A stretch of 29,005 bases of DNA from positions 1 through 29,005 of the IMG/VR virus record IMGVR_UViG_3300026116_001051; one strand, given 5' to 3'. Positions 1-29,005 of the stretch are shown piece by piece. Each line of letters opens with the position of its first letter. The stretch's first letter is position 1. Under the pieces are notes generated by a model. That model did no database searches and was not told the origin of the DNA. It saw only the letters and a program-made list of their open reading frames with translations. This DNA comes from a virus. A program made the position numbers and the translations under genes.

Positions 1-2634
1 GACCAGGCTGGCTCCCTGGCCCGTCGCCTCGCCGCCGGCCAGAGGCGTACGGGCGATGGCGTCGGCGATCTTGCGGGCCTTCTCCGGGTCATCGCCGGTG
101 ATCCAGTCGATGGGCGTGGTGCCCGGTGGCATCACCGGGCTGCTCTGCCCCAGGTGGCGAATGCGGTCGATCAGCTCGCGTACCGCGCCAAGTTTTTCGG
201 CGATCCAGTCGAGCGTCTTGCGCGCGGCGTTCTCCACGCTCTGCCACATCTCGGCGAACCAAGCCTTCACCGGTTCCCAATGCACCACCACCCAGCCCGC
301 CGCGGTGCCGATGGCCTCGCCGAGCGCCACGAACATCTGCACGCCGAAGCTGACGGCCTGCACCACGCCGCGGATGGCGGCGCCGACCAGTTGCCCGAAC
401 GTCACGCCGGTCGCGCGGGCATTGGCCATCTGCTCCTGGGTGGCCTGCATGGGCTCCAGCAGTTGCGTGATCCAGCGCCACACGCTAACCAGGCATCCGA
501 CGATCACGTCGAACGCCGGCTTGAGCGGCGCGAGCGCGCGGCCGATGTCAGCGAACACCGGCCCTACGGCCTGGCCGATGCCATCCCAAACACCCGAGAA
601 CCAGGCCGAGAGCGGTTGCCAGTAGCGACGTATCGCCAGGGCCGCGACGATCACCAGCGCGATCAGCGCGGCCACCGGCAGGCTCACACCGGTGATGGCG
701 AGCATGGCGGCACGGGCGCCGGTAGCGATGGCTGGGAACAGGCGACCCAGCATCGGCAGGCGCGACAGCAGGCCGCCCTCGGCGCCGCCGGCCATCGCGC
801 CGACGCGAATGCCCCCGAGGCGCATGACGTAGCGCAGCAGCGCGAACTGGCCGAGCAGCCCGCCCAGGCCGATCATCAGGCTGCCCACCGTCGCCAGCAG
901 CACGCCAGCACTGCCGGCGACCAGCAGCATGCCCTTGGCCAGCGCCGGGTGACGTTGGGACCAGCCGCTGACGGCACGCAGGACGCCCACCAACTTGCCC
1001 AAGCCCGCTACGTAGACGGGCAGCAGTTGCTCGCCCAGCTCGCGGTACAGGTCCGACTTGCGGGCCAGCAGCTCGGCCTCCTGGCCCGCGGCGTTCTGGC
1101 GGGCTTCGTCGTAGAGCGCATCTACGCCGAAGGCCTTGGGGGCCGCGGCCAAGTGCTTGGCGATGTTCGCGCGCTCCATGAACAGCGACGCGAACAGGTC
1201 ACCGCCCTTGCGGCCGGAGAACAGCGCGTTGATCTTGCTCACCACCTGCTGGTCGTTGAGCTGGCCGTCCGGGTTGAGCTTCGGGATCACCCGCGTCATC
1301 AGGTACTCGAACGGGTTGCTCCGATAGAGGTCGCCCTCTTTCAGTGCATCGGGCAGCAGCTTCTTGAGGTGGCCCGTCTTCTCATGGACTTCGATAGCGC
1401 CGGGCTTGAGCAGGCCCAGCTGGAACAGTTCGTCGGCCGACTGGCGGGTGGAGCGCCCGGCCGCCCAGTTCTGGTAGGCCGTCGACAGGCCCGTACCGGC
1501 GCGGTGGCCGCCCATTTCCTGCACGGTATGCAGCAGGCCGAAGAAGAACGACTGATCGTCCAGCTGCTTCGCCGCGACGCCGCCGGTCTTGATCATGTTG
1601 AGCAGGTCTTCGGACTTCACCAGGCCGCCGGAGGCGACGTACGCCTGGGTGGCGAAATCCAGCACGCGCTTCAGGCTTTCCGGGCTCTTGGCGGCGCCGC
1701 GCAGCTCGGCCACCTTGAGCAGGTCCATGAACATGGTCTCGGCGGTGTCGCCGTGCCCCTCGCCATGCCCGCCCTGGGCCATCACGGTCTCGATGCCGAA
1801 CTTCATGCGCGCGAGGTAGGGCGTCACTGCCTCCGCCTCATGCATGTCGCGCAGGACGCTGTAGGACTCTTTCAGGAGCTTCAACGTCTCGGTCGCGCTC
1901 GTGCCCATGATGTCCTGCGCCCGGGCAAACTTCACCGCATCGGTCACCAGGGCATCGCCGACGCCCATGGCGCGCAACTGCGCGACCTGCGCCGTCCAGG
2001 CCTTCGCCTCGGTCACCGTAGGGCTGATCGCGTCCAGCAGATGCTTGCCGGTCTCCCGCGTGGCGTAGCCGCCCACGGTGAGATGCGCCGCCGTCGCCGA
2101 ACTGCGCTCGAAGCTTTGGCGGGCCGCGGCCATCTTCTGTTGCTGCTGGGTGAGCGCGCTGAGCTTTTTCTGCTGCTCGCCCAGCTGCGCGTTCGCCGCG
2201 GCGATGTCGTCGCGCAGCCGTCGCTCATGGCCGGCCAGGTCGCGCGTATGGATGCCGGCGGCACCCAGGGCTTCGCGCACGGATTGCAGCCGGCGGACAT
2301 TGGCCTGGTACTGCCCGCCCAGCGCGTCGGCCTGGCGCTTCGCCGCCGCGAACTCCCGGGTCTGCTGCCGAGTCGGGTTCGTGGTGCCGGCAAGGGCGCG
2401 CCCCAGCTCGGTGGCGCGTTGGCGTGCCGCCGCTAGCTGGGTGCCCAGGGCCTGAGTGCCTGCCTTGAGCTGGCGGAAACCCTTCAAATCGTCCTGCGCC
2501 CTCTGCAGTTCCTTGAGGCGCTGGCGGGTCTCGCGCAGCGCCTTGGACGTGGCGGCGGAACTGCCGGCGATGCCGCGCAAGGGCGCGGTCACCTTGTCGA
2601 TCATGTTCAACAGGACACTGAGTTTCAGATCCAC
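1..2634 (-). CDS. T: Phage tail tape measure protein (P2 gpT-like), 3' part outside window
   Basis: The frame is open without a stop from a GTG at 2634 to the window edge (878 codons seen), so the C-terminus is missing. The GTG lies just after the E' stop, with GGCGAGG as ribosome binding site. Residues 1-150 are rich in Gln, Ala, Arg and Lys and look helical or coiled-coil. The middle contains long hydrophobic stretches around residues 565-600 and 645-670, and another follows near 790-820; such segments are usual in tape measure proteins. The family sets tail length and helps DNA pass the inner membrane. The place directly downstream of E/E' is where P2 has T. The P2 protein is about 815 residues, so this one is somewhat longer. 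The long plus-strand frame over the same bases is a GC-driven shadow. Family assignment rests on position, size and composition rather than a single motif. Confidence 0.93.
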   Translation of the reverse strand, partial: MDLKLSVLLNMIDKVTAPLRGIAGSSAATSKALRETRQRLKELQRAQDDLKGFRQLKAGTQALGTQLAAARQRATELGRALAGTTNPTRQQTREFAAAKRQADALGGQYQANVRRLQSVREALGAAGIHTRDLAGHERRLRDDIAAANAQLGEQQKKLSALTQQQQKMAAARQSFERSSATAAHLTVGGYATRETGKHLLDAISPTVTEAKAWTAQVAQLRAMGVGDALVTDAVKFARAQDIMGTSATETLKLLKESYSVLRDMHEAEAVTPYLARMKFGIETVMAQGGHGEGHGDTAETMFMDLLKVAELRGAAKSPESLKRVLDFATQAYVASGGLVKSEDLLNMIKTGGVAAKQLDDQSFFFGLLHTVQEMGGHRAGTGLSTAYQNWAAGRSTRQSADELFQLGLLKPGAIEVHEKTGHLKKLLPDALKEGDLYRSNPFEYLMTRVIPKLNPDGQLNDQQVVSKINALFSGRKGGDLFASLFMERANIAKHLAAAPKAFGVDALYDEARQNAAGQEAELLARKSDLYRELGEQLLPVYVAGLGKLVGVLRAVSGWSQRHPALAKGMLLVAGSAGVLLATVGSLMIGLGGLLGQFALLRYVMRLGGIRVGAMAGGAEGGLLSRLPMLGRLFPAIATGARAAMLAITGVSLPVAALIALVIVAALAIRRYWQPLSAWFSGVWDGIGQAVGPVFADIGRALAPLKPAFDVIVGCLVSVWRWITQLLEPMQATQEQMANARATGVTFGQLVGAAIRGVVQAVSFGVQMFVALGEAIGTAAGWVVVHWEPVKAWFAEMWQSVENAARKTLDWIAEKLGAVRELIDRIRHLGQSSPVMPPGTTPIDWITGDDPEKARKIADAIARTPLAGGEATGQGASLV

Positions 2635-2635
2635 G

Positions 2636-3060
2636 CTAGTCCTCGCCGCCGTTCCGCAACCGGGCGCGTTCGCGCCACTGCACCAACTCGCTCACGTCCA
2701 TGCCGTCCATCGTCGGCGGTGGCCAATGGAAGACCACCGCGATGTCGGCCATGGCGTCTTCGACCGTTACGGGAAGCCCTCCCGCTTGGCCTTCGTCAAC
2801 AAAAAAGAGGCCAGCTCCGACCCGAACTGCGTGATGTCCGCCGGATCGAGCTGGCTGACCTCGTGCTTGGTGAGGGTCGGCACGGTGATGCGCGGCAGGA
2901 CGATTTCGAGCGCCGCGATGTCCATGTGCAGCAGGTTCACCAGCTGCGTACCGCGCAGCTCGCCAGCCTTGGGCTTGCGCAGGCGCACTTCGGTGAGGAT
3001 CTGCTCGCCGCGGCGGATCGGCTCGTCCAGCGTAATGACGGGCATGGTGGTGTCGTTCAT
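2636..3060 (-). CDS. E+E': Tail assembly chaperone fusion E+E' made by -1 ribosomal frameshift
   Basis: The 0-frame product starts at the ATG at 3060. A -1 slip at the heptamer T TTT TTG (2800-2806) moves ribosomes into a frame that runs on to TAG at 2636, giving a product of about 141 residues. The E' part contains the stretch ADIAVVFHWPPP and ends with VSELVQWRERAR, the pattern of the short P2 GpE family (PF06528). P2 makes E and E+E' in the same way, and the sizes are close (P2 about 91 and 142 residues). These proteins act as tail assembly chaperones that bind the tape measure protein, which is encoded immediately downstream. The slip itself is inferred from the sequence and from P2. An independent start at the internal ATG of MADIAVV is possible but has no clear binding site. 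Confidence 0.85.
2767..3060 (-). CDS. E: Tail assembly protein E (unshifted product)
   Basis: This 97-residue protein starts MNDTTMPVITLDEPI and contains the stretch TEVRLRKPKAGELRG, typical of the phage tail assembly chaperone family to which P2 gpE and Mu gp41 belong (PF10109). It is the 0-frame product of the frameshifting E/E' gene; its last 15 or so codons follow the slippery site. An AGGA motif lies about 8 bases before the ATG. It lies 30 bases downstream of the tail tube gene and before the tape measure gene, as in P2. It is predicted to be a soluble cytoplasmic chaperone that is not kept in the virion. Confidence 0.88.
   Translation of the reverse strand: MNDTTMPVITLDEPIRRGEQILTEVRLRKPKAGELRGTQLVNLLHMDIAALEIVLPRITVPTLTKHEVSQLDPADITQFGSELASFLLTKAKREGFP
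2800..2806 (-). promoter_or_regulatory. Programmed -1 frameshift slippery site T TTT TTG
   Basis: On the minus strand the heptamer TTTTTTG sits in E with the phasing T TTT TTG (Ser-Phe-Leu codons TCT TTT TTG). This is the same heptamer used by P2 for E+E'. Stop codons and frames on both sides fit: the 0 frame ends at 2767 and the -1 frame runs to 2636. Confidence 0.85.
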
Positions 3061-18040: not shown

Positions 18041-19801
18041 ATGCTCATGCCGACGATGGATCCCCGACGACACGCGCGCAGCCTGTTCTTTCAAGGCTGG
18101 GGTGTGACCGAGATTGCGCAGCACCTGGTGCTGCCCCGCGCCACGGTGGAATCGTGGAAACAACGCGACGCATGGGCGTCCGCACGCTCCATTGATCGCG
18201 TGGAAATGCAGCTGGACGTGCGCCTGTGTCAGCTCATCATGAAAGAGCCCAAGAGCGGCGGCGACTACAAGGAGATCGATCTGCTCGCGCGGCAGATTGA
18301 GCGCCTGGCGCGCGTACGCCGCTACGAAGCGCCGGGCGGGCACGAGGGCGACCTCAACCCCGCGGTGGCCAACCGCAATGCCAAGGCGCGGCGCAAGCCG
18401 GTACGCAACGAGTACAGCCCCGAGCAGGCCGTGCGGCTACGGGAAGCCTTTCTCGATTCGCTGTTCGCCTACCAGCGCACCTGGCACGAACAAGGTCTGG
18501 AAAGGCGCATCCGCAACATCCTCAAGTCCCGCCAGATTGGCGCGACCTGGTACTTCGCCCGCGAAGCGCTGGTCGATGCGATGGACACCGGCAGGAACCA
18601 GATTTTTCTGTCAGCCAGTCGCGCGCAGGCGGATGTGTTTCGGCAGTACCTGACACAGTTCGCCAAGGATGCGGCCGAGATCGAGTTCAAGGGCGATCCG
18701 CTGATCCTGCCCAACGATGCCACGCTGTACTTCCTGGGTACGAACTCGCGCACGGCGCAGAGCTATCACGGCAATCTATATTTCGACGAATACTTCTGGG
18801 TCCACAGCTTCCAGACGCTGCGCAAGGTCGCGTCGGGCATGTCCAGCCACAAGAAGTGGCGGCAGACCTATTTCTCCACGCCGTCATCGCTGAGCCACGA
18901 CGCCTATCCGTTCTGGTCCGGTGCGCAGTTCAACAAGGGCCGCGCGAAAGCCGACCGGGTCGATATCGATACTTCGCACGCTGCGCTCGCCGCGGGCCTG
19001 TTCTGCGGGGATGGACAGTGGCGGCAAATCGTCTCGGTGATCGACGCGCTGGCCGGCGGCTGCGACCTGTTTGACATCGATCAGCTGCGCTTGGAATACG
19101 GCGACGACGAATTCCAGCAGTTGTTCATGTGCGCGTTCATTGACGACAGCGCGTCGGTGTTCCCGTTCAACCTGGTCAAGCGCTGCATGGTGGACAGCTG
19201 GGATACCTGGGACGACTTCCGCGTCTATGCGCCGCGACCGGTCGGCGATGCCGAAGTGTCCATTGGTTTCGATCCGTCGAAAGGCGCGACGGGTGGTGAT
19301 CCCTCCGGCTGCACCGTCAATGCGCTGCCTACCCGGCAACGCGACGTGTTCCGTGTGCTGGAGAAATTCCAGTGGCCGGGGCAGGACTTCGATGCCCAGG
19401 CCGGCAATATCAAAGCGCTGTGCGACCGCTACCGCGTGGCAGATATCGCCATCGATACCACGGGCATGGGTACGGGCGTGTATCAGCTAGTGAAGCAGTT
19501 CTTCCCAATGGCTCGGGCGATCCAGTACTCGCCCGAGACCAAAGGCCAGATGGTCATGAAGACCCAGGACGTCATGAACAAGGGGCGCCTGGAGTTCGAT
19601 GCCGGCTGGACCGACCTGGCGGCAGCCTTCATGGCGATCCGCAAGACCATGACTGCCAGCGGCCGCCATGTGACCTATGACGCCAGCCGCTCGGCGGACG
19701 TCGGCCACGCAGATCTCGCTTGGTCGGTCATGCACTCCCTCATCTACGAACCGCTGGAAGGCCGCGCGGCCCACAGCCAGAACGTCATGGAGATTTTCTA
19801 A
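18041..19801 (+). CDS. P: Terminase large subunit P (P2 gpP-like ATPase/nuclease)
   Basis: The 586-residue protein (P2 gpP about 590) begins with a helix-turn-helix (GVTEIAQHLVLPRATVESWKQRDAW, about 21-45; terminase HTH, PF06056). The ATPase domain shows the Walker A-like LKSRQIGATW (161-170) and Walker B LYFDE (246-250). The nuclease domain has three acidic sites: D411 (IGFDPSKG), D472 (IAIDTTG) and D558 (GHADLAW). It cuts cos and pumps DNA into the capsid through the portal Q, encoded next with a TAATG overlap. ATGs at 18047 and 18056 are alternative starts, and the last (MDPRRHARSLFFQGW) agrees best with the usual family N-terminus. Confidence 0.96.
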   Translation: MLMPTMDPRRHARSLFFQGWGVTEIAQHLVLPRATVESWKQRDAWASARSIDRVEMQLDVRLCQLIMKEPKSGGDYKEIDLLARQIERLARVRRYEAPGGHEGDLNPAVANRNAKARRKPVRNEYSPEQAVRLREAFLDSLFAYQRTWHEQGLERRIRNILKSRQIGATWYFAREALVDAMDTGRNQIFLSASRAQADVFRQYLTQFAKDAAEIEFKGDPLILPNDATLYFLGTNSRTAQSYHGNLYFDEYFWVHSFQTLRKVASGMSSHKKWRQTYFSTPSSLSHDAYPFWSGAQFNKGRAKADRVDIDTSHAALAAGLFCGDGQWRQIVSVIDALAGGCDLFDIDQLRLEYGDDEFQQLFMCAFIDDSASVFPFNLVKRCMVDSWDTWDDFRVYAPRPVGDAEVSIGFDPSKGATGGDPSGCTVNALPTRQRDVFRVLEKFQWPGQDFDAQAGNIKALCDRYRVADIAIDTTGMGTGVYQLVKQFFPMARAIQYSPETKGQMVMKTQDVMNKGRLEFDAGWTDLAAAFMAIRKTMTASGRHVTYDASRSADVGHADLAWSVMHSLIYEPLEGRAAHSQNVMEIF

Positions 19802-20808
19802 TGAGCAAGCGCAAGCGCCGTGTCGAACACAGCGAGCCCGTCAAGGACACCACGGCGGGCGGTCGCTTCGAGGCGTTCACCTTCGGCGATCCCGAGCCCA
19901 TCGACCGGTCCAACCTTCTGGACTATGTGCAGGTGTGGCACAACAGCCGATGGTATGAGCCGCCGGTGAGTCAGGCCGGCCTGGCCAACATGTTACAGAT
20001 TGCGCCGCATCACTCGTCGGCCATCTATGTGAAGCGGAACCTGCTCATTTCCGCGTTCCAGCCGACCCGTTACCTGTCGGTGGCGGAGTTCGAGGCCTTC
20101 GCCATGGACTACCTGACCTTTGGCCAGGCGTACCTGGAATGCGAGGAGGCGTTATCGGGCCGCTTGCTTCGGACCAAGCACACGCCGTCTCTGTTCACGC
20201 GTCGCGGGGTCGAAGAGGGCACGTTCTGGTTCGCGCCGCTGAACCGCCAAGCCTTCCAGTTTGAGCGGCCGGTGGTGCAGATGAAGGCGCCGGATGTGCG
20301 GCAAGAGGTGTATGGCGTCCCCGAGTACCTGAGCGCGCTGCATGCGGCGCAGCTCAACCGCTCGGCCACGCTGTTCCGCCGCAAGTACTACGACAACGGT
20401 TCGCACGCGGGTTTCATCCTCTACATGACCGATCCGGCCCAGAACCCCGACGACGTGGACAACCTGCGTAAGGCTCTTAAGGGTGCGAAGGGGCCGGGGA
20501 ATTTCCGCAACCTCTTCATGTACGCGCCGAGCGGTAAGAAGGACGGCCTGCAGTTAATTCCAATCAGTGAGGTCGCGGCCAAGGACGACTTTGCGTCGAT
20601 CAAGAATGCGAGTCGCGACGACATCCTCGCGGCGCATCGCGTGCCGCCTCAGCTGCTGGGGATGATTCCGACTAATGCCGGCGGTTTTGGCGATGTGGGC
20701 AAGGCAAGGGATGTCTTCAACGAGAATGAGATCGACCCTCTGATTGCCCGCATGCTCGGATTGAACGACATATTAGGTGCTAGGGTCTTCTGCTTCAAAG
20801 ACGCGTAA
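19801..20808 (+). CDS. Q: Portal protein Q (P2 gpQ-like)
   Basis: The ATG at 19801 overlaps the P stop as TAATG and gives 335 residues (P2 gpQ 344). The segments FEAFTFGDPEPIDRSNLLDYVQVWHNSRWYEPPVS, then HHSSAIYVKRNLL, then GTFWFAPLNRQAFQFERPVVQMKAPDVRQEVYGVPEYLSALHAAQLNRSATLFRRKYYDNGSHAGFILYMTD, and finally RVPPQLLGMIPTNAGGFGDVGKA are all diagnostic of the P2 portal family (PBSX/P2 portal, PF04860 type). Twelve copies form the DNA entry ring. A strong terminator follows the stop. Confidence 0.97.
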   Translation: MSKRKRRVEHSEPVKDTTAGGRFEAFTFGDPEPIDRSNLLDYVQVWHNSRWYEPPVSQAGLANMLQIAPHHSSAIYVKRNLLISAFQPTRYLSVAEFEAFAMDYLTFGQAYLECEEALSGRLLRTKHTPSLFTRRGVEEGTFWFAPLNRQAFQFERPVVQMKAPDVRQEVYGVPEYLSALHAAQLNRSATLFRRKYYDNGSHAGFILYMTDPAQNPDDVDNLRKALKGAKGPGNFRNLFMYAPSGKKDGLQLIPISEVAAKDDFASIKNASRDDILAAHRVPPQLLGMIPTNAGGFGDVGKARDVFNENEIDPLIARMLGLNDILGARVFCFKDA

Positions 20809-20810
20809 AA

Positions 20811-20840
20811 GAGAAAGGCGGTCAAAGGGCCGCCTTTCTT
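20811..20840. terminator. Rho-independent terminator after Q, probably bidirectional
   Basis: A perfect stem GAAAGGCGG/CCGCCTTTC (20813-20821 with 20830-20838, extended by one or two A-T pairs) with an 8-base loop follows the Q stop by two to five bases. It continues TTTCTTGC on the plus strand and TCTTTT on the minus strand. It can end P-Q transcription and also transcription arriving from the RHS region on the other strand. Confidence 0.88.
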
Positions 20841-20876
20841 TCTTGCTATGCATATCGCTACTCAAGCCAGTGAGCT

Positions 20877-21245
20877 TCAATTTGCGTGTTGTGGCTGCGC
20901 CGACTTTACCCGATCTGCGTTGTAGTCACGAAGCAGCGCCAACCCGCCCGTCGGCACAAGTAGGTCCGAAACGGAATTGGGCGCGCCGGCGGGAACGCTT
21001 GCTTGCTCCTTCAGCATCGCGCTCATTGCCTTCAGCTCAGCACTGACTTCTTCGGCCTTCCCTGAGTCGAGCTTGGTGACGAAGCGATCGTACTCAGTCG
21101 CCTGAGATGACCAGTTGCGCTGATTTATATGCAAGCCGATTTCGAGGCTCTTGCTGAAGCCGGCCCAGTAGGACATCCAGCCGATCAGGAAGCCCCCAAT
21201 GACCAGAAGGCTGACTTTAATCAATGGCTTGAATTTGCTTTGCAT
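20877..21245 (-). CDS. Single-pass membrane protein downstream of RHS gene, possible immunity partner
   Basis: From the ATG at 21245 the protein has 122 residues beginning MQSKFKPLIKVSLLVIGGFLIGWMSYWAGFSK: a short basic N-terminus, one membrane helix (about 8-27), and a mostly helical outer domain (ATEYDRFVTKLDSGKAEEVSAELKAMSAMLKEQ). The start codon comes one base after the RHS stop, with GGAGGA inside the last RHS codons as binding site, so the two are surely co-translated. No family is recognised. Small genes directly after polymorphic toxin genes often encode immunity proteins, and a membrane-anchored periplasmic protein would fit a toxin acting in the envelope, but nothing in the sequence proves this. 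An in-frame ATG at 21272 inside RHS is less likely. Confidence 0.7.
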   Translation of the reverse strand: MQSKFKPLIKVSLLVIGGFLIGWMSYWAGFSKSLEIGLHINQRNWSSQATEYDRFVTKLDSGKAEEVSAELKAMSAMLKEQASVPAGAPNSVSDLLVPTGGLALLRDYNADRVKSAQPQHAN

Positions 21246-21246
21246 C

Positions 21247-24200
21247 TCATTCCTCCGCGTGATCGAAAACACAGGCCGGTTCCCTTACTCGCCATTCTTC
21301 GATACATGATGTGCGATTAAGTACGGTGGGGCAGCTCTCGGTGCATTTTTGTATCTTTTCGAGCATGGCATTGTGGCATGGGTGCAGGGGGCTGCCTGGA
21401 ATATATTTGGGTTCAAGCTGGTCGTTGGGTTTTGGGAGGGGGCACTTTTTTGCCTTCTTGGTTTCCCCATCAGACTCCTTCAGGCCACTTGCCCACCAAT
21501 TACCATCATCTGGGCACAGCCCCAACGGGTCGACGTACAGCATAGGATTCCCGCTGGCGTACAAGTAAGTACTGGTGCCACCGTTGAGTCCCAGCGGATC
21601 GCTCTGAAGGTAGCGGCCAGTGGCGGCTTCATAGCCACGGTTGATGTTGTAAGCGATGCGTGACTCAGCATCGTAGTACTGCCCTGCAAATCGCAGATTG
21701 AAGGTGTAGCCACTGGTCGAGGTGGGCTGCGTCTCGCCGAACGGGTTGGACTGATACGCCCATTGCCATACCGTCGCGCCGGTGCTGTCGGTGATCGCTC
21801 GCGGCGTGTTGAGGCCATCGGCATGCACGTAGTTGGTCGTGCTCACTGCGCCTTGTGTATCAATGACTGCCAGCGGGAGATCTTCCAGCCAAATGTAATC
21901 GCGGGTGGTGCCACCGTACTCGCCGATGAGCTGGCTGCTTTCGTTGTAAGCGAAGCGCTGGCTTAGCGACGCCGGCAGCGTAGCCACCTTGGCGATACGC
22001 TCGCCAAGGACGTTATAGGTATAGGTGCCGACTGTGCTGCCATTGCGCTGCGCGATGGTCATCCGATTTCGACCGTTGTAGCCGAAGCCAAACGATTCGC
22101 CACCCACCGAGCTGGCGGTCGTGTTGCCGTTGTTGTCGTACGCGCGGGCGGCGCTGCCGATATAGCTGAGCCAGTTGTGGGGATACTGATAGTAGCTATA
22201 CGTACCCGTCGCGATTCCGCTGCCGGTCTTGCTCGTACGGTTGCCGATGGCGTCGTATGTGTAGGACTCCACGCTCGTGCCGGCGGAATTGTTCACGCCT
22301 GTGAGGCGCGACAACCAATCGTAGCCGTAGGTCTCCGTGGCGGGGGTGGCGCCAGGCGCGTTGCCCAGGGCCGTGATGCGCCCCATAGCATCACGGGCGA
22401 AGTGCAGGTTGAGCGCCGGGCTGGTGGCGTCCGTCACCTGATAGTTCAGGTCGTAGGTGCGCGTGACGGTCTGGCCGTTCCCCAGGGTGTAGCTCGCGAC
22501 CGGGCCGAAGGGCAGATAGGTGATACCGGTCGCGATGTTGCCGGTGCCGGCGCCCGTCGTGCCGGGCGGTAGCGCCGTGATGGCGCTGACGCGACCCACG
22601 GTATCGTACTGGTACTGGACGGACGTGCCACTCGGCGTGACGACGCCGGCAAGGCGGTCCGCCGAGGTATACGAGTAGCCCGTAACGTCCGTCACTGAAC
22701 CCTGGGTCTGGCTCTTCTGCGTGACATTGCCGCGGGCGTCGTAGCAGTACACCGTGGTGAGGGTGGCTTCGACGATGCGGGTCAGGCGTCCCACAGGGTA
22801 CGAGCCTACACAACCGGTGACGCTGTCGGCCTCGTCGTAGTGATAGGCGACATTGAGACTGGTATCGACGTACGTGGTCGCTAGAACGCGGCTGAGCGCG
22901 TCGTAGCTTGACGTCGCAACGATGTTCTTGGCGTCCATCCGGGTCAGCACGTTGCCAGCCACATCGAATGTGGAGGAGGTCGTGCCCGTGTCGGGGCTGG
23001 TCAACGTCTTCCGGTTGCTCAGGCCGTCGTAAGCACTGGTCGTGTACTTGTAGTCCGGCGTGAGCGTCTGGGTAAGGTTGTCCAGCACGTCGTAGGTGTA
23101 GCTGGTGGACGACACCACCGTCGAACCGTTGACCGTGGCGCTGCTCTGGAGGCCAGAGTAGCGATTCAGGCCATCATAGCTTCGCGTCTGGGTCACGCCC
23201 AGCGCATCGACCGACGTTACCAAGTTGCCGTTCGCATCGTAGGCGCCACTGGCGCTGGCATCGAAGACGGTGTGGTTCAAGCCGTCAATGACCTTGGTAA
23301 GCCGACCCAGGTTATTGAATGTGCGAGACAGATGGCGGCTCGGTGTGGAGCTACCCACGGCATAGGTTGCCTCGTCTGTACGATTGCCCGCCGCGTCGAG
23401 CGTGTAGTGAATGTGGTTGCCTTGGGCATCCGTAATGTCGGTCAGCCGGTGGGCGTTGTCGTAACCATAGGTGACGGTCACGCCATCGGCATCGGTGACG
23501 GATTCCACGGCGCCATAGGGCTTATAGGTATATGTCGTCGTCGCCCCTCCGACCGTGCGCGTCTTGAGCCAGCCGCGCGGGGTATAGGCCAGGTCCGTGA
23601 TCACGCCATTGGCGTCCATCTGACGGGTTGGGCGACCCGCCAGGTCGTAGGTGGAGGTGGTGGTCACGTGGCCGAGCGCGTCGGTGATTTGATAGAGGTC
23701 GCCTGCCCGGTGACACGCGCCGCCCGCCGTGGCGCAGCCGGACGTATCGGTGGTCATGTAGTAGCTGTAGTGCGTGATGTCGGAGACATCCGTGCGCGGA
23801 CCGTCTTCCGTCAGCTTCAGGCCGACGACGGGGCATTGGGTGGTGTCCACGCTCGTGCAGTACGTATAGGTCCACTGACGCACACCGGCAGGCGCCTGCG
23901 CGTTACTGCCGCAGGTGTAGCTGGACGCACCACTGATCGCCGGGTCGATCTCGCAACGCGCGGTCACTTGGCCGGTGCTGTTGTACACCCAGGCGCTTTG
24001 CGTGATGGGGTTGTTGTTGCTGTCGAGCGTGATCCGCGTCAAGGGGTTGCGAAGCGTCGTGTCCCAAGTGGTATTGATTGTGCGTTGCTGCCCGAGCGAC
24101 GCCAGGTTGTAGCCTTCGATCCGCTGCGTTTCCAGGCCCGCCGTGTTGTAGGTGAGCTTGGTGACGTTGAAGGTGAAGTCCGTGTACTGGCTGGGATAGC

Positions 24201-25605
24201 CATTCGTGTCGTACTGAATCGACTGATACTTCTGCTTGCACCAGTCCGTATTGCAGGCGGCAAACGTACCGGTCAGCTTGATGGCGCCATAGCCATCATC
24301 TTTCATCGAGACATTGCCCGAGGCGCCGAGTGGAAACGTCATCGTAGCGAACGTGCTGCTACCACCCGAAATACTAGTGGCATTGGCTCCGCCGGCGTGG
24401 GAGGACGACACCGCGCGACCATTGGTGGCGCTGTAGCCGGTCGTGTCGTACCGGACGCCGGCCTCATCGATGACGCCAGTCATCGCATACGGGAAGCTGG
24501 CGCCACCCGTATAAGCCGGTTCGTTATAGACGTATTGCTTGGTCTTGCTATCGGGATACTGGACGGAGGTCAGTGTGCCGTTGGTGTAGCCATAGGTCAG
24601 CACGCCACCATCTGGAAGCGTTACCGTGTGCAGTAACCCGGCGCCGTCGTAGGCAAACTGCAGGGTGCGGCCGAACGGGTTGGTCACGGTCTGCAGCTTC
24701 CCGCCACTGTAGGTGAGCGTGGTCATCTGGCCGGTCGCATCGGCGATGTACTGCAATTGGCCGGAGGTTGAATAGCGCTCGAACTGGTTGGGGCCGGCGA
24801 CGTAGACCGTGAAGCCGGTGCTATCGGCCGTCAGCGTGTCGGGGATGTTGGGGTCGGCCGCCCAGCCGCCATTCGCCGTGGGTAAGAAGCGCTCGCTGCG
24901 CCCATCGGGTCGGAGCAACTGGATGTACGAGGTGCCACCGCCACCCACCAGCGTGTTCTGGAACAGCAGGGAACGATCAAAGGAGTGGCGCCACTGAGGC
25001 CCTAGGCTCGCGGGTCGCACGCTGGCCTGGCTGTTGTAGAAACGCCGGAACGTCAGCCACGACAGGGCGTCGAAATCGGTGTCCTGCTCGTACTTGTTGC
25101 CGGTCGCCAGATTGATCGGATCGCCGCCGAACGTTTGCGCCGGGCAGATAATCATACCGTCGCCGCCATCCACGCCCGTGCCGCCATTGCAGTTGCCCGA
25201 ATCCCCAGTGTTCTTTTCGGGGTTGTTGTCGTAGGCCGACAACTGAACCTCGATGGTGTGGCTGGGGCAGACGAAGCTGCTCGGGTCAGTCGAGACGTAG
25301 TAGACCTTCGCCACGTTGCCTTGCGCCTGCTGCGTGGCGTTTTCGTAGGCTGAGGTGACTTGGCAATTCGCGCCGGCAGGGTAGCGGGCGGCAAGGAACT
25401 GTTTGGTCCCGTTGAGCGCCAGGTCGATCGCGCCCCATGTGTACTGCACAGGGTTGTTGTTCGTATCGACATCTTTGATGTAGAACGGGATGGCGTAGTA
25501 GGTCGTGGCGCTGATAGCGCCTACCCATCCCAAACACAGGGCCAACGCCCACACTGAAAGCCACACGCGACGTGTGCGGCTATTACTCCACAGCTTAGCG
25601 GTCAT
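21247..25605 (-). CDS. Secreted RHS/YD-repeat protein with short cysteine-rich C-terminal domain
   Basis: The 1452-residue protein starts with a Sec-type signal peptide (basic SRTRR, then [18 protein letters not shown], about residues 12-32). A DUF6531-like segment follows near 160-215 ([18 protein letters not shown], then WRHSFDRSL), and then dozens of YD repeats such as YDALSR, YDANGN and [10 protein letters not shown]. The RHS core ends with [36 protein letters not shown] and a second DPLGL near 1363. The last 89 residues differ from RHS repeats and hold seven Cys. RHS shells enclose and deliver C-terminal toxins, or act at the surface. AAGGAG precedes the ATG. In a P2-like phage this gene is cargo, placed between the portal gene and the cos candidate. 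No frameshift is visible, so it is probably expressed. Confidence 0.95.
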   Translation of the reverse strand: [1452 protein letters not shown]

Positions 25606-25692
25606 CCCCTGTCTCCTTGACTGTTACGTTCTCAATCCTGAGTTCGCGCGGCGTTCCCTCAGCGGCGCGGCGTCATCCATAAAATCATTGGC

Positions 25693-25721
25693 GTATTACA
25701 ACTGCAGGTCGACAGGGCCAA
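25693..25721 (-). promoter_or_regulatory. Weak candidate promoter of the RHS gene
   Basis: On the minus strand TTGGCC (25721-25716) and TAATAC (25698-25693) are separated by 17 bases, about 90 bases before the RHS start. The match is only moderate (4/6 and 3/6). The rest of the 25606-25933 gap shows no gene; a hairpin lies at 25804-25821. Confidence 0.3.
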
Positions 25722-25803
25722 CCCGGGGCCATGTGCCAGCATCTCAGGTCGGGATGTCAAGAAGATGTGAAGATCGAGCGGCGGTACATTGGGGCGCCGC
25801 CTT

Positions 25804-25821
25804 CGCTGCCTAAAGGCAGCG
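25804..25821. other. Perfect 7-bp stem-loop between DUF4238 and RHS genes
   Basis: CGCTGCC-TAAA-GGCAGCG forms a 7-bp stem with a 4-base loop about 115 bases after the DUF4238 stop. There is no following T-run on either strand, so it is not a standard intrinsic terminator. It may be an mRNA 3' structure or an operator. Confidence 0.45.
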
Positions 25822-25933
25822 GTTCGCCTTGAGGGAGGCCAGCACACATCAGGTCGCGCGGACGATATATGTGGAACGTCTGCGCAGTGGCGGTATGCCT
25901 TTACATCAAAGCTGCGCGGTGCTGCTGGGGCGA

Positions 25934-26833
25934 CTACGACCTTCCACCGCGAGGGAGACGTTGGACGATAGATGTGAGGAGTGCTTCATCGCGTGCAATG
26001 ACCCAGCGATCACCATTTAGGGCAAGCCGGAAATTCATACTCCGCACCGCGCCCTGATCCGTTTCCCTGTGGTCGATGCTTTGGCCACGGTCGTACATCA
26101 CGAGCGCAGCGCCAAGTGAGAGCGGAAATATCTTCAGTACACCAGGCGTATTGATGCCGATTCCCATCAGATGATTCGTTGGTTGCGTCGGCACCAGCGC
26201 TATAGGGTTATCGCTCGTTATAAAAGAAGTGCGGCGAGGGGCGTGCCAGACAATCCAATCCATGTTCAAGAACGCATGTGCGATCTTGTCGGTCACTGTC
26301 ATCATCGAGTCTAAGCTCGCATTGCGGTGCACCTCTACAATGAATCGCCGCTCGCTGAAGAATGCGGCGGCTTCTTCAGGCGTGCCACCCAACTCGTTGC
26401 CTATGTCCGCATAGGCTTTCATTGTCTCCGCCGCTCGCTCGACTGTACCGAACGCTTCGTCACCAATAAGGGTGGCGAGTTGCTCGTGCATGCCGTTGAC
26501 TTGACGTTGAAACCTAACGGTCCTAGTTACCGCAAAACCTAGAAACCAGCACAGCCATTCCTTTTCGTCAGCGGTGATAGCGGCGCCAGAGGACAGCTTG
26601 CCCATTGCGGGCTTCGCATTGCCTTCGATATTGCCGAGGAACTTCTCGATGTCGTACCGATTGTTCCCGTCATTATCAATGAAGGTGTAGAAGTTACGGG
26701 ATATCGTCGAGGTCTTCGGCGGCTGCGGTCGAATTTCGCCTGTCGTTCGGTCAAATACCCAGATCGCCCCGTCCCTACTGAATTGTTCTAGGTAGCTGCT
26801 TGGCGCCACATGCTGCTTCACTGGCTCGTTCAT
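25934..26833 (-). CDS. DUF4238 family protein, accessory gene
   Basis: From the ATG at 26833, preceded by GGAAAGGGA, the protein has 299 residues beginning MNEPVKQHVAPSSYLEQFSRDGAIWVFDRTTGEI. The N-terminal pattern QH-AP--YL--F---G-IWV-DR and the later FITSDNPIALV, then FPLSLGAALVMYDRG are characteristic of DUF4238 (PF14022). The H-P-YL-F motif and the SDNP motif are the best conserved parts of that family. The biochemical role of the family is not established. There is no signal peptide or membrane segment. The gene is more AT-rich than the structural genes and stands alone, 328 bases before RHS. It lies in the cargo region between the portal gene and the cos candidate, a place where P2 carries the exclusion genes old and tin on the other side of cos. 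A role in phage exclusion is only a guess from position. Confidence 0.85.
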   Translation of the reverse strand: MNEPVKQHVAPSSYLEQFSRDGAIWVFDRTTGEIRPQPPKTSTISRNFYTFIDNDGNNRYDIEKFLGNIEGNAKPAMGKLSSGAAITADEKEWLCWFLGFAVTRTVRFQRQVNGMHEQLATLIGDEAFGTVERAAETMKAYADIGNELGGTPEEAAAFFSERRFIVEVHRNASLDSMMTVTDKIAHAFLNMDWIVWHAPRRTSFITSDNPIALVPTQPTNHLMGIGINTPGVLKIFPLSLGAALVMYDRGQSIDHRETDQGAVRSMNFRLALNGDRWVIARDEALLTSIVQRLPRGGRS

Positions 26834-27081
26834 TCCCTTTCCAGTCCTGCCCTGAATCACAAAAGCCTACTCAATGCGAAGACATCGTTGCTGATCACGA
26901 TGGATCGGCCTGCATGATCAATGCCGAGCGTGTGCAATGGCCTTTAGATACGACGCTATGACCGCATCGGCCGCTTTGGGTGGGCACCGGCCGCGGGTGC
27001 GATGAGGCGCCTGGGAAGCCGCCTGCACGGGCCTGGGGCCGACTAAGGTTAACTGAATGGGTTCGCTACCCTGCGCGCGCG

Positions 27082-27100
27082 GTCGTCCCCCCTCCTCGCC
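27082..27100 (-). other. cos: Candidate cos site (cohesive end) of the P2-like phage
   Basis: The minus strand reads GGCGAGGAGGGGGGACGAC. From memory the P2 19-base cohesive end is GGCGAGGCGGGGAAAGCAC: 14 of 19 positions agree, including the first seven. The next bases (CGCGCGCGCAGGG) also resemble P2 (TGCGCGCTGACGG). Orientation fits P2: the sequence is read on the strand opposite to Q and lies beyond the Q 3' end. The distance to Q, about 6.3 kb, is much larger than in P2 because the RHS/DUF4238 cargo lies between. Confidence 0.62.
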
Positions 27101-27292
27101 TGCGCACTTCCCCCTTCTCTTTTGATGCAGCGGACGCAGTGCTTCGGACTGAGGCGTGGTGCTGGCTCAGAGATGACGTATGGGGTCGGGTCGGCGATGC
27201 GAATTGATGCGCCTGAGGGCGTGCTGACCTACTTACGGGTCTGCGCGCCTGGCAGGGCACACGATGTCAGTAGCCAGGAGGTTGGGCGCGGG

Positions 27293-27958: not shown

Positions 27959-29005
27959 TCAACGGTCAACCAGGTGCTCGGGACGTAGGTGCGTATAGCG
28001 TTTGAGCGTTTGCCAGGATTCGTGCAGCGAGAATTGCGCCACTTCTTGGATGGCATAGCCTCGCTCGAAAAGACGTGACGTAGCTTCGTGGCGTAGGTCG
28101 TGAAACGTCAGGTTTTCAATATCTAGTACCTTGCATGCGCGCGCGAAAGCGGCGCCGATTGATTTAGGGTTGTACGGAAACACCCGGTCTTCGCCGTCGA
28201 CCTCCGGTTGCCTATCGATGATGTTCCAAGCTTCGGGGAGCATGCGGAATTTCTTCCGGTTGCCCTCTTTCATCGTGGGATGTTTCACGTCATCCAACCA
28301 GGCGCAGGGTCGCTCGAAGTTCGAACGACGAATCTCTGTTATCTCTTCCTGCCGGCGTGTCGTAAGCACGGCGAAGTCGTAGATATCCGACATGGGTATC
28401 TGCGAGCGCTTGTCGCGACGCGCGAAGTAGTCACGAAGTGCGACGTCCTCCGCGGCCGTTACACGTCGATCCCGCCACCGGGATTTGCGGATGACCTTCC
28501 GTTGTCGCAGTTCGTGGCGGGCGTCGGCCAGCAGATCGAGACGAAGCGGGAGATTGAACCCGGCGCGCGCTGAGCGGAGCACTTGGCCTATCCATACCAG
28601 GTCGTTGCCCACGGTGGCGGTACCCGCGCCGTCTTTGCGCCTGGTCATCACGTGGGCGATGTAGTCGGCGGTGGTGAGTTCCATGGCCACCTTATTGGCG
28701 ATATCGCAGCCTTCCAGGCGGGTCAGGTCGTAAGCCTTGGTTCGCCCCCATTTAGCGGTAGGACCAACCGTCTCGCGGTACCATTTAATCAAGCTGGCCA
28801 GCGTGGTCTTGGCGCCGTGCAGCGTGCCGCGTGCGCGGTGCTGGTCAAGTTCAGCCTCGCGCCGTCGCATCCATTCCTGAGCGAGCGCCTTGCGGCCAAA
28901 CGTCTCCGTCTCGCTGTGGATCACCTTGCCGGATTTCTTGAGGCGGATGACCGCCGTATAGCTTGATTGGCCGTCCTTGCGACGGCGAGTAAGGATGGTA
29001 CCCAC
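27959..29005 (-). CDS. int: Tyrosine-type site-specific integrase
   Basis: The frame begins with GTG at the last base of the window and reads VGTILTRRRKDGQSSYTAVIR, which looks like the true N-terminus of this integrase group (often MGTI-RR-KDG); a slightly earlier start outside the window cannot be excluded. The 348 residues comprise an N-terminal arm-binding part (1-60), a core-binding domain (about 65-170) and a catalytic domain. Catalytic residues seen: R218 in LTTRRQEEI, probably K246, H302 and R305 in FHDLRHEA, H328, and Y337 in LKRYTHL. It integrates and excises the element at an att site. It points towards the late genes, opposite to what P2 order would predict, and no repressor or cox gene is seen between it and Q. 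Confidence 0.93.
   Translation of the reverse strand: MGTILTRRRKDGQSSYTAVIRLKKSGKVIHSETETFGRKALAQEWMRRREAELDQHRARGTLHGAKTTLASLIKWYRETVGPTAKWGRTKAYDLTRLEGCDIANKVAMELTTADYIAHVMTRRKDGAGTATVGNDLVWIGQVLRSARAGFNLPLRLDLLADARHELRQRKVIRKSRWRDRRVTAAEDVALRDYFARRDKRSQIPMSDIYDFAVLTTRRQEEITEIRRSNFERPCAWLDDVKHPTMKEGNRKKFRMLPEAWNIIDRQPEVDGEDRVFPYNPKSIGAAFARACKVLDIENLTFHDLRHEATSRLFERGYAIQEVAQFSLHESWQTLKRYTHLRPEHLVDR

What the first reader, a model, noticed from the sequence alone, without database searches (positions are those of the whole stretch)
20877..26833. RHS toxin-like cargo with tightly coupled membrane partner and DUF4238 in a P2-like prophage
A full-length, signal-peptide-bearing RHS protein of 1452 residues takes up about 15 percent of the window in a phage whose other genes are structural. 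Its partner gene begins one base after its stop. Both lie with DUF4238 between portal and cos, close to the region where P2-like phages carry superinfection exclusion genes. This suggests a lysogenic conversion module for competition between bacteria or for surface modification that excludes phages.
Basis: partly seen in the sequence, partly recalled or inferred. Interest (0 to 1): 0.75.

Follow-up and report, generated by a model that had tools for sequence, protein, structure and literature searches.

The report
Phage-borne swappable RHS toxin–immunity cargo
A virus that lives inside soil bacteria of the Dyella group carries, beside its DNA-packaging site, a large secreted RHS protein whose tip and matching partner gene are swapped as one unit between phages and chromosomes, which strongly suggests a toxin and its antidote that the resident virus gives its host for fighting neighbouring bacteria, next to a gene of a known anti-phage defence family.

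Summary
A 1452-aa, signal-peptide RHS protein, a 122-aa partner with one predicted membrane helix (starting one base after the RHS stop) and a DUF4238 gene lie between the P2-type portal gene and a cos site, which I located at 27082-27100. The best reading is a polymorphic RHS toxin/immunity pair. Compared with a 93%-identical core in Dyella sp. SG609, DNA identity collapses at the core/tip junction. The window's own tip and partner reappear together (63% and 44-52% identity) on an RHS core only 26% identical. In 77 relatives, every partner similarity coincides with a tip similarity (10/10; 0.12 expected). All six sampled phages of this clade (portal at least 89% identical) carry RHS plus a partner in the portal-cos interval, with differing cores, tips and partners. 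The RHS tree mixes phage and chromosomal copies, so the cassette has been exchanged repeatedly. The site corresponds to the published P2 cos-proximal defence hotspot, and DUF4238 is a family validated from it, so it is probably a second, separate cargo. Toxicity, immunity and export are untested; the tip's target is unknown. RHS toxins and the hotspot are each known; this combination was not found described in the open library searched.

The parts
21247..25605 (-). RHS protein, 1452 aa: signal peptide (about residues 1-34), DUF6531 (161-240), RHS/YD repeats, Rhs_assc_core (1287-1363), variable tip (1364-1452)
   Evidence: AlphaFold beta core, best PDB match T6SS RHS effectors
21250..21516 (-). 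C-terminal tip (89 aa, Cys-rich) after VDPLGL: putative toxin
   Evidence: identity to L100 collapses here; same tip on another RHS core in L221, remnant in L222
20877..21245 (-). 122-aa partner, one N-terminal membrane helix predicted: putative immunity protein
   Evidence: co-occurs with the tip in L221, L222, L129
25934..26833 (-). DUF4238 gene, 299 aa (alternative GTG start at 26860): putative anti-phage defence gene
   Evidence: PF14022 1.7e-37; PADLOC DUF4238-Pers 4.2e-9; family validated in PMC9122126
27082..27100 (-). cos cohesive-end sequence
   Evidence: 14/19 match to P2 cosL, GGCGAGGnGGGG plus GCGCGC in register
27073..27138 (.). conserved cos element
   Evidence: conserved in relatives while flanking cargo differs
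25501..25773 (-). RHS start and upstream region; homology to the Dyella SG609 copy at 25501-25683 and, with a TTGACA motif, at 25737-25773: possible own promoter
   Evidence: the consensus promoter scan found nothing
20805..20846 (.). strong hairpin between the convergent portal and partner genes (position of P2 tQ)
   Evidence: -26 kcal/mol; P2 annotation
19798..20808 (+). portal (gpQ-like)
18041..19801 (+). terminase large subunit (gpP-like)
27959..29005 (-). dusA-type integrase; record ends exactly at its start codon
   Evidence: next to dusA in Dyella OK004

Best explanation
The RHS gene and the 122-aa gene are a polymorphic toxin/immunity cassette carried as lysogenic-conversion cargo in the portal-cos interval of a Dyella/Rhodanobacteraceae P2-like phage. 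Proposed working: the lysogen expresses the cassette from a promoter of its own (inferred); the RHS protein is exported through Sec (signal peptide shown by sequence, export inferred) and folds into the RHS beta shell (predicted). The 89-aa cysteine-rich tip, released after the invariant DxxG site (inferred), reaches neighbouring related bacteria (route unknown) and harms them, probably at the cell envelope, because the partner is predicted to sit in the inner membrane with its soluble part outside the cytoplasm (inferred). The partner protects the producer and its clonemates (inferred). The tip and partner are exchanged as one unit between RHS carriers, and whole RHS cassettes are exchanged between phage and chromosome (shown by comparison). 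DUF4238 is a separate anti-phage gene in the same hotspot (family function published, here inferred).
For: Tip/partner co-inheritance: 10 of 10 partner links are tip links, 0.12 expected, maximum 4 in 10,000 permutations. Sharp identity drop at the core/tip junction against a 93%-identical core. The window's tip and partner occur together on a 26%-identical RHS core in another genome, and an intact partner beside a broken tip survives in D. marensis as an orphan. Other tips in the family are recognisable toxin domains: Peptidase_M15, Tox-REase-7, YkuD; a related RHS tip in L010 has a weak HNH match and a DUF4265 partner. 46 of 50 long relatives have a signal-like N-terminus. The aspartate of the final DxxG is invariant in 79/79. 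Fold matches antibacterial RHS effectors such as Tse15, RhsA and RhsP. Position and recurrence in the phage clade. RHS tree mixes phage and chromosomal copies. dN/dS 0.08 and 0.18.
Against: No toxicity, protection or secretion data. The window's tip has no recognised catalytic domain and the partner model is unusable (pLDDT 46). The published cleavage motif is not matched strictly: one extra residue between Y and D in most of the family (0/79 strict, 68/79 relaxed). How an RHS protein without PAAR or VgrG crosses the outer membrane is unknown. Partner similarity was detectable for only 10 pairs. The window is an incomplete prophage, so phage activity is unproven.
Confidence: 0.75

Rival explanations
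1. The RHS protein is a surface or adhesion protein of the lysogen that masks receptors or otherwise excludes other phages; the small gene helps it in the membrane.
For: Signal peptide and beta-shell fold; position in a hotspot known for phage-exclusion genes.
Against: Tip and partner diversify together and independently of the core, which toxin/immunity pairs do and adhesins need not; sibling tips are peptidases and nucleases; RHS has no PADLOC match.
Confidence: 0.1
2. The cassette mainly serves the phage: cells that lose the prophage lose immunity and are killed by lysogenic siblings, so it works as an addiction or kin-discrimination device.
For: Present in all six sampled phages of the clade with differing specificities; an orphan immunity gene with a broken tip in D. 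marensis; RHS genes remain beside cos in prophage relics.
Against: Compatible with, not an alternative to, interbacterial killing; no segregation data; small sample from one clade.
Confidence: 0.3
3. The three genes are host DNA placed next to the portal by chance insertion or misassembly.
For: Closely related RHS genes are common in Rhodanobacteraceae chromosomes; the record ends at int.
Against: Same position and orientation of RHS plus partner between portal and conserved cos in other contigs, including a 39.8-kb contig with a 99%-identical integrase.
Confidence: 0.03
4. RHS, partner and DUF4238 are one anti-phage system.
For: Same strand, adjacent, same hotspot; DUF4238 alone protects E. 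coli against T7 (PMC9122126).
Against: Relatives have RHS and partner without DUF4238; homology to L100 stops between RHS and DUF4238; 330-bp gap between them.
Confidence: 0.05

Closest known systems
P2-like cos-proximal defence hotspot between gpA and gpQ (Rousset et al. 2022, PMC9122126)
   Same: Variable cargo between portal and cos; a DUF4238 single-gene defence system was validated from it; other phages with this cos carry SIR2-, TIR-, KAP-NTPase- and AlbA-like genes there, judged by eye.
   Different: Cargo here is a secreted RHS toxin/immunity cassette (Rhs is not mentioned in that paper). The far side of cos is flanked by orf75 and a dusA integrase instead of gpA. Host family is Rhodanobacteraceae.
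RHS/WapA-type polymorphic toxins exported by Sec (Zhang et al. 2012, PMC3482391, Table 1)
   Same: Signal peptide, RHS repeats, conserved core end, exchangeable tip, adjacent immunity gene.
   Different: Repeatedly carried at one fixed site of a P2-like phage clade; tip family not in Pfam.
T6SS RHS effectors (RhsA, RhsP, Tse15, Tse5)
   Same: Predicted RHS shell fold, C-terminal toxin position.
   Different: No PAAR, VgrG or clade domain found; signal peptide instead.
MuF polymorphic toxins of temperate phages (Jamet et al. 2017, PMC5576092)
   Same: Polymorphic toxins encoded by temperate phages, possibly for competition.
   Different: MuF toxins are part of the packaging module and may be injected with DNA; this RHS has no MuF domain and has a signal peptide.
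SitBAI toxins in Mx-alpha prophage elements of Myxococcus (PMC5562445)
   Same: Prophage-associated polymorphic toxin/immunity cassettes that set kin compatibility.
   Different: SitA are lipoproteins delivered by outer-membrane exchange; no RHS, not P2-like.

Membership tests
RHS polymorphic toxin with immunity gene | RHS/YD repeats ending in an RHS-associated core | tested here: met
   PF05593 3.7e-40; TIGR03696 70.1 bits over cutoff 32.5
RHS polymorphic toxin with immunity gene | C-terminal tip that varies abruptly after the core | tested here: met
RHS polymorphic toxin with immunity gene | small gene directly downstream, specific to the tip | tested here: met
   ORF within -59..+103 nt in 79/79; co-inheritance 10/10
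RHS polymorphic toxin with immunity gene | aspartyl self-cleavage motif DP(I/L)GxxGGx5Yx8D(P/S)xG(L/W) | tested here: inconclusive
   final Asp 79/79, but spacing one residue longer; strict 0/79, relaxed 68/79
RHS polymorphic toxin with immunity gene | tip is toxic and partner neutralises it | not testable with these tools
   needs expression assay
T6SS RHS effector | PAAR, VgrG or adaptor-binding N-terminal domain | tested here: not met
   no such Pfam or NCBIfam match; signal-like N-terminus
P2-like cos-proximal cargo hotspot | variable genes between gpQ and a P2-type cos | tested here: met
P2-like cos-proximal cargo hotspot | gpA on the other side of the region | tested here: not met
   orf75 and integrase follow cos
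DUF4238 anti-phage system | single protein with PF14022 | tested here: met
   129.8 bits over cutoff 27; PADLOC match partial, 34 bits
DUF4238 anti-phage system | protects against phage | not testable with these tools
   needs plaque assay
MuF phage toxin | N-terminal MuF domain | tested here: not met
   no match
dusA-site integrase | integrase gene beside the 5' end of dusA | tested here: met
   for the 92%-identical integrase in Dyella OK004; the window itself ends at int

The most novel reading that the evidence does not exclude
A clade of P2-like phages regularly carries a Sec-exported RHS toxin/immunity cassette beside cos and keeps changing its specificity by exchange with a large chromosomal RHS reservoir, so that the prophage, not the chromosome alone, sets which lysogens are kin and punishes cells that lose it.
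Probability: 0.3. Interest if true: 0.75.

Novelty: new variant of a known kind. Interest (0 to 1): 0.55.

Why it matters
It would extend the P2 cos-proximal hotspot from anti-phage defence to weapons against other bacteria, and offers a route by which RHS toxin repertoires spread: a phage clade whose members share nearly identical structural genes but each hold a different RHS core, tip and immunity gene. It makes testable whether temperate phages set bacterial kin compatibility, and supplies a new toxin-tip/immunity family.

Tried and rejected
Searches with the partner or RHS as single queries found no relative in viral contigs, and the partner none in phage records; the RHS alignment was needed. 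DUF4238 and the tip found no relative in viral contigs. No phage record shares the region at DNA level; the best protein-level phage hits to the RHS are 33-37% identical Pseudomonas phage records without the P2 setting. The window's tip has no Pfam, NCBIfam or convincing PDB match (best E 0.056, treated as chance). The partner structure prediction failed (pLDDT 46). The promoter consensus scan found nothing. A phiCTX-like layout was considered from memory; the record was not held, so it is not claimed. Chance insertion and assembly artefact were rejected because other contigs repeat the layout.

Full report
WHAT IS THERE. The window is a 29,005-base IMG/VR virus record. It holds P2-type head, tail and lysis genes in P2 order. 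The RHS stop and the partner ATG are one base apart and the partner's ribosome site lies inside the RHS gene, so translational coupling is plausible. A strong hairpin separates them from the convergent portal gene, where P2 has its tQ terminator. The record ends at the first codon of the integrase. In Dyella sp. OK004 the 92%-identical integrase starts next to dusA, a known integration site for such integrases (PMC4482086). I infer that the right end is the trimmed prophage border.

COS. A 55-70 base non-coding element at 27073-27138 is conserved in all relatives examined, although the genes between it and the portal differ. On the minus strand it contains GGCGAGGAGGGGGGACGAC, against the P2 cohesive end GGCGAGGCGGGGAAAGCAC, followed in register by GCGCGC. 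In P2 the portal gene lies 167 bases from cosL; here the interval is about 6.3 kb. P2 tin and old lie on the other side of cos.

SURVEY OF THE INTERVAL. Scanning viral contigs for the cos element and adding earlier loci gave 27 portal-cos intervals. The six with a portal at least 89% identical to the window's (window included) all carry an RHS gene plus a small partner. The 21 with portals 52-77% identical carry none of this RHS family; they hold other genes, several resembling defence genes by eye (SIR2-, KAP-NTPase-, TIR- and AlbA-like). The six are one clade, so this is not six independent events. In 233 Rhodanobacteraceae genomes the cos element occurs at 12 sites in 8 genomes, and RHS of this family lies near it at six of them, often with phage genes decayed. 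Rousset et al. (PMC9122126) described the equivalent E. coli P2 region as a hotspot of anti-phage systems, and validated a single DUF4238 protein from it against T7. The window's DUF4238 matches Pfam's model well and PADLOC's model partly.

TOXIN/IMMUNITY ANATOMY. An RHS alignment found 15 viral and 62 bacterial loci, nearly all from Dyella, Rhodanobacter and Luteibacter. Of these, 79 RHS core ends could be read. Each is followed by a tip of 84-200 aa and then a small ORF beginning -59 to +103 nt from the stop. Among 77 non-identical cases there are 35 tip links and 10 partner links, and all 10 partner links are tip links; 10,000 permutations gave 0.12 on average and 4 at most. Against Dyella sp. 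SG609 (L100; protein core 93% identical over the tree alignment), DNA identity is mostly 75-97% across the core and falls to about 35% at the core/tip junction near 21.5 kb. The window's own tip reappears 63% identical, with its partner 44-52% identical, on an RHS protein whose main match to the window's is 26% (L221). A second copy follows an RHS remnant (L222). In Dyella marensis an 89%-identical intact partner remains beside a broken tip (L129), like an orphan immunity gene. Other tips match Peptidase_M15, Tox-REase-7 and YkuD. Partners vary from soluble to signal-bearing to membrane proteins. This is the behaviour of polymorphic toxin/immunity pairs (PMC3482391).

MECHANISM. Shown: signal-like N-terminus in 46 of 50 long relatives, no PAAR or VgrG domain, predicted RHS beta core (pLDDT mostly 80-95) with a disordered tip, closest solved folds being antibacterial RHS effectors. 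The final Asp and Gly of the core are invariant in 79 of 79, though the published cleavage motif (PMC11461821) is met only with one extra residue. Inferred: Sec export, self-cleavage, delivery to neighbours by an unknown route, an envelope target (from the predicted membrane topology of the partner), and protection by the partner.

EVOLUTION. On a tree of 71 RHS cores, P2-phage copies are scattered among chromosomal copies: 9 changes of label, at least 6 forced by well-supported branches, no more clustered than shuffled labels (short search, no bootstrap). Phages with portals about 90% identical hold RHS genes from at least three well-separated parts of the tree, up to five. Conversely L093 and L094, with portals 54% and 93% identical to the window's, have closely related RHS cores, tips (82%) and partners (63%). 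The cassette therefore moves between phages and between phage and chromosome; the direction is not established. RHS core and partner are under purifying selection (dN/dS 0.08 and 0.18).

LIMITS. No experiment supports toxicity, immunity, secretion or phage activity. The tip's target is unknown. The window lacks the rest of the prophage. Absence of prior description was checked only in the open library.

Noticed in passing
L010:10503-11925: In a P2-like relative (portal 69%) an RHS end piece with a weak HNH match (E 0.043) is followed by a DUF4265 partner next to the portal: a possible second kind of RHS tip cargo.
   Followed up: partly
L012 and L017, about 2.1-4.1 kb past the portal: P2-like phages with a PAAR-like protein (by eye) and a small membrane-type gene beside the portal, possibly a T6SS effector/immunity cargo in the same region.
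   Followed up: no
L143 (record titled Candidatus Eremiobacteraeota, CAJCJD010000025.1): Its RHS core sits inside a Rhodanobacter group on the tree; the contig may be misbinned.
   Followed up: no
L162:16925-19792: Far end of the related 39.8-kb prophage contig encodes a 956-aa protein with weak matches to BREX-type DNA methyltransferases, a possible further defence cargo.
   Followed up: no
L176 and L186: Two different viral contigs carry an apparently identical four-gene cargo of 4.7 kb between portal and cos.
   Followed up: no
L087, L088, L091, L095: Viral-collection contigs with this RHS family but no P2-like portal detected; either other phage types or misclassified chromosome.
   Followed up: no
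window 1-2700: Long plus-strand ORFs such as 154-2436 are probably antisense to a tape-measure gene running off the left end (by comparison).
   Followed up: no
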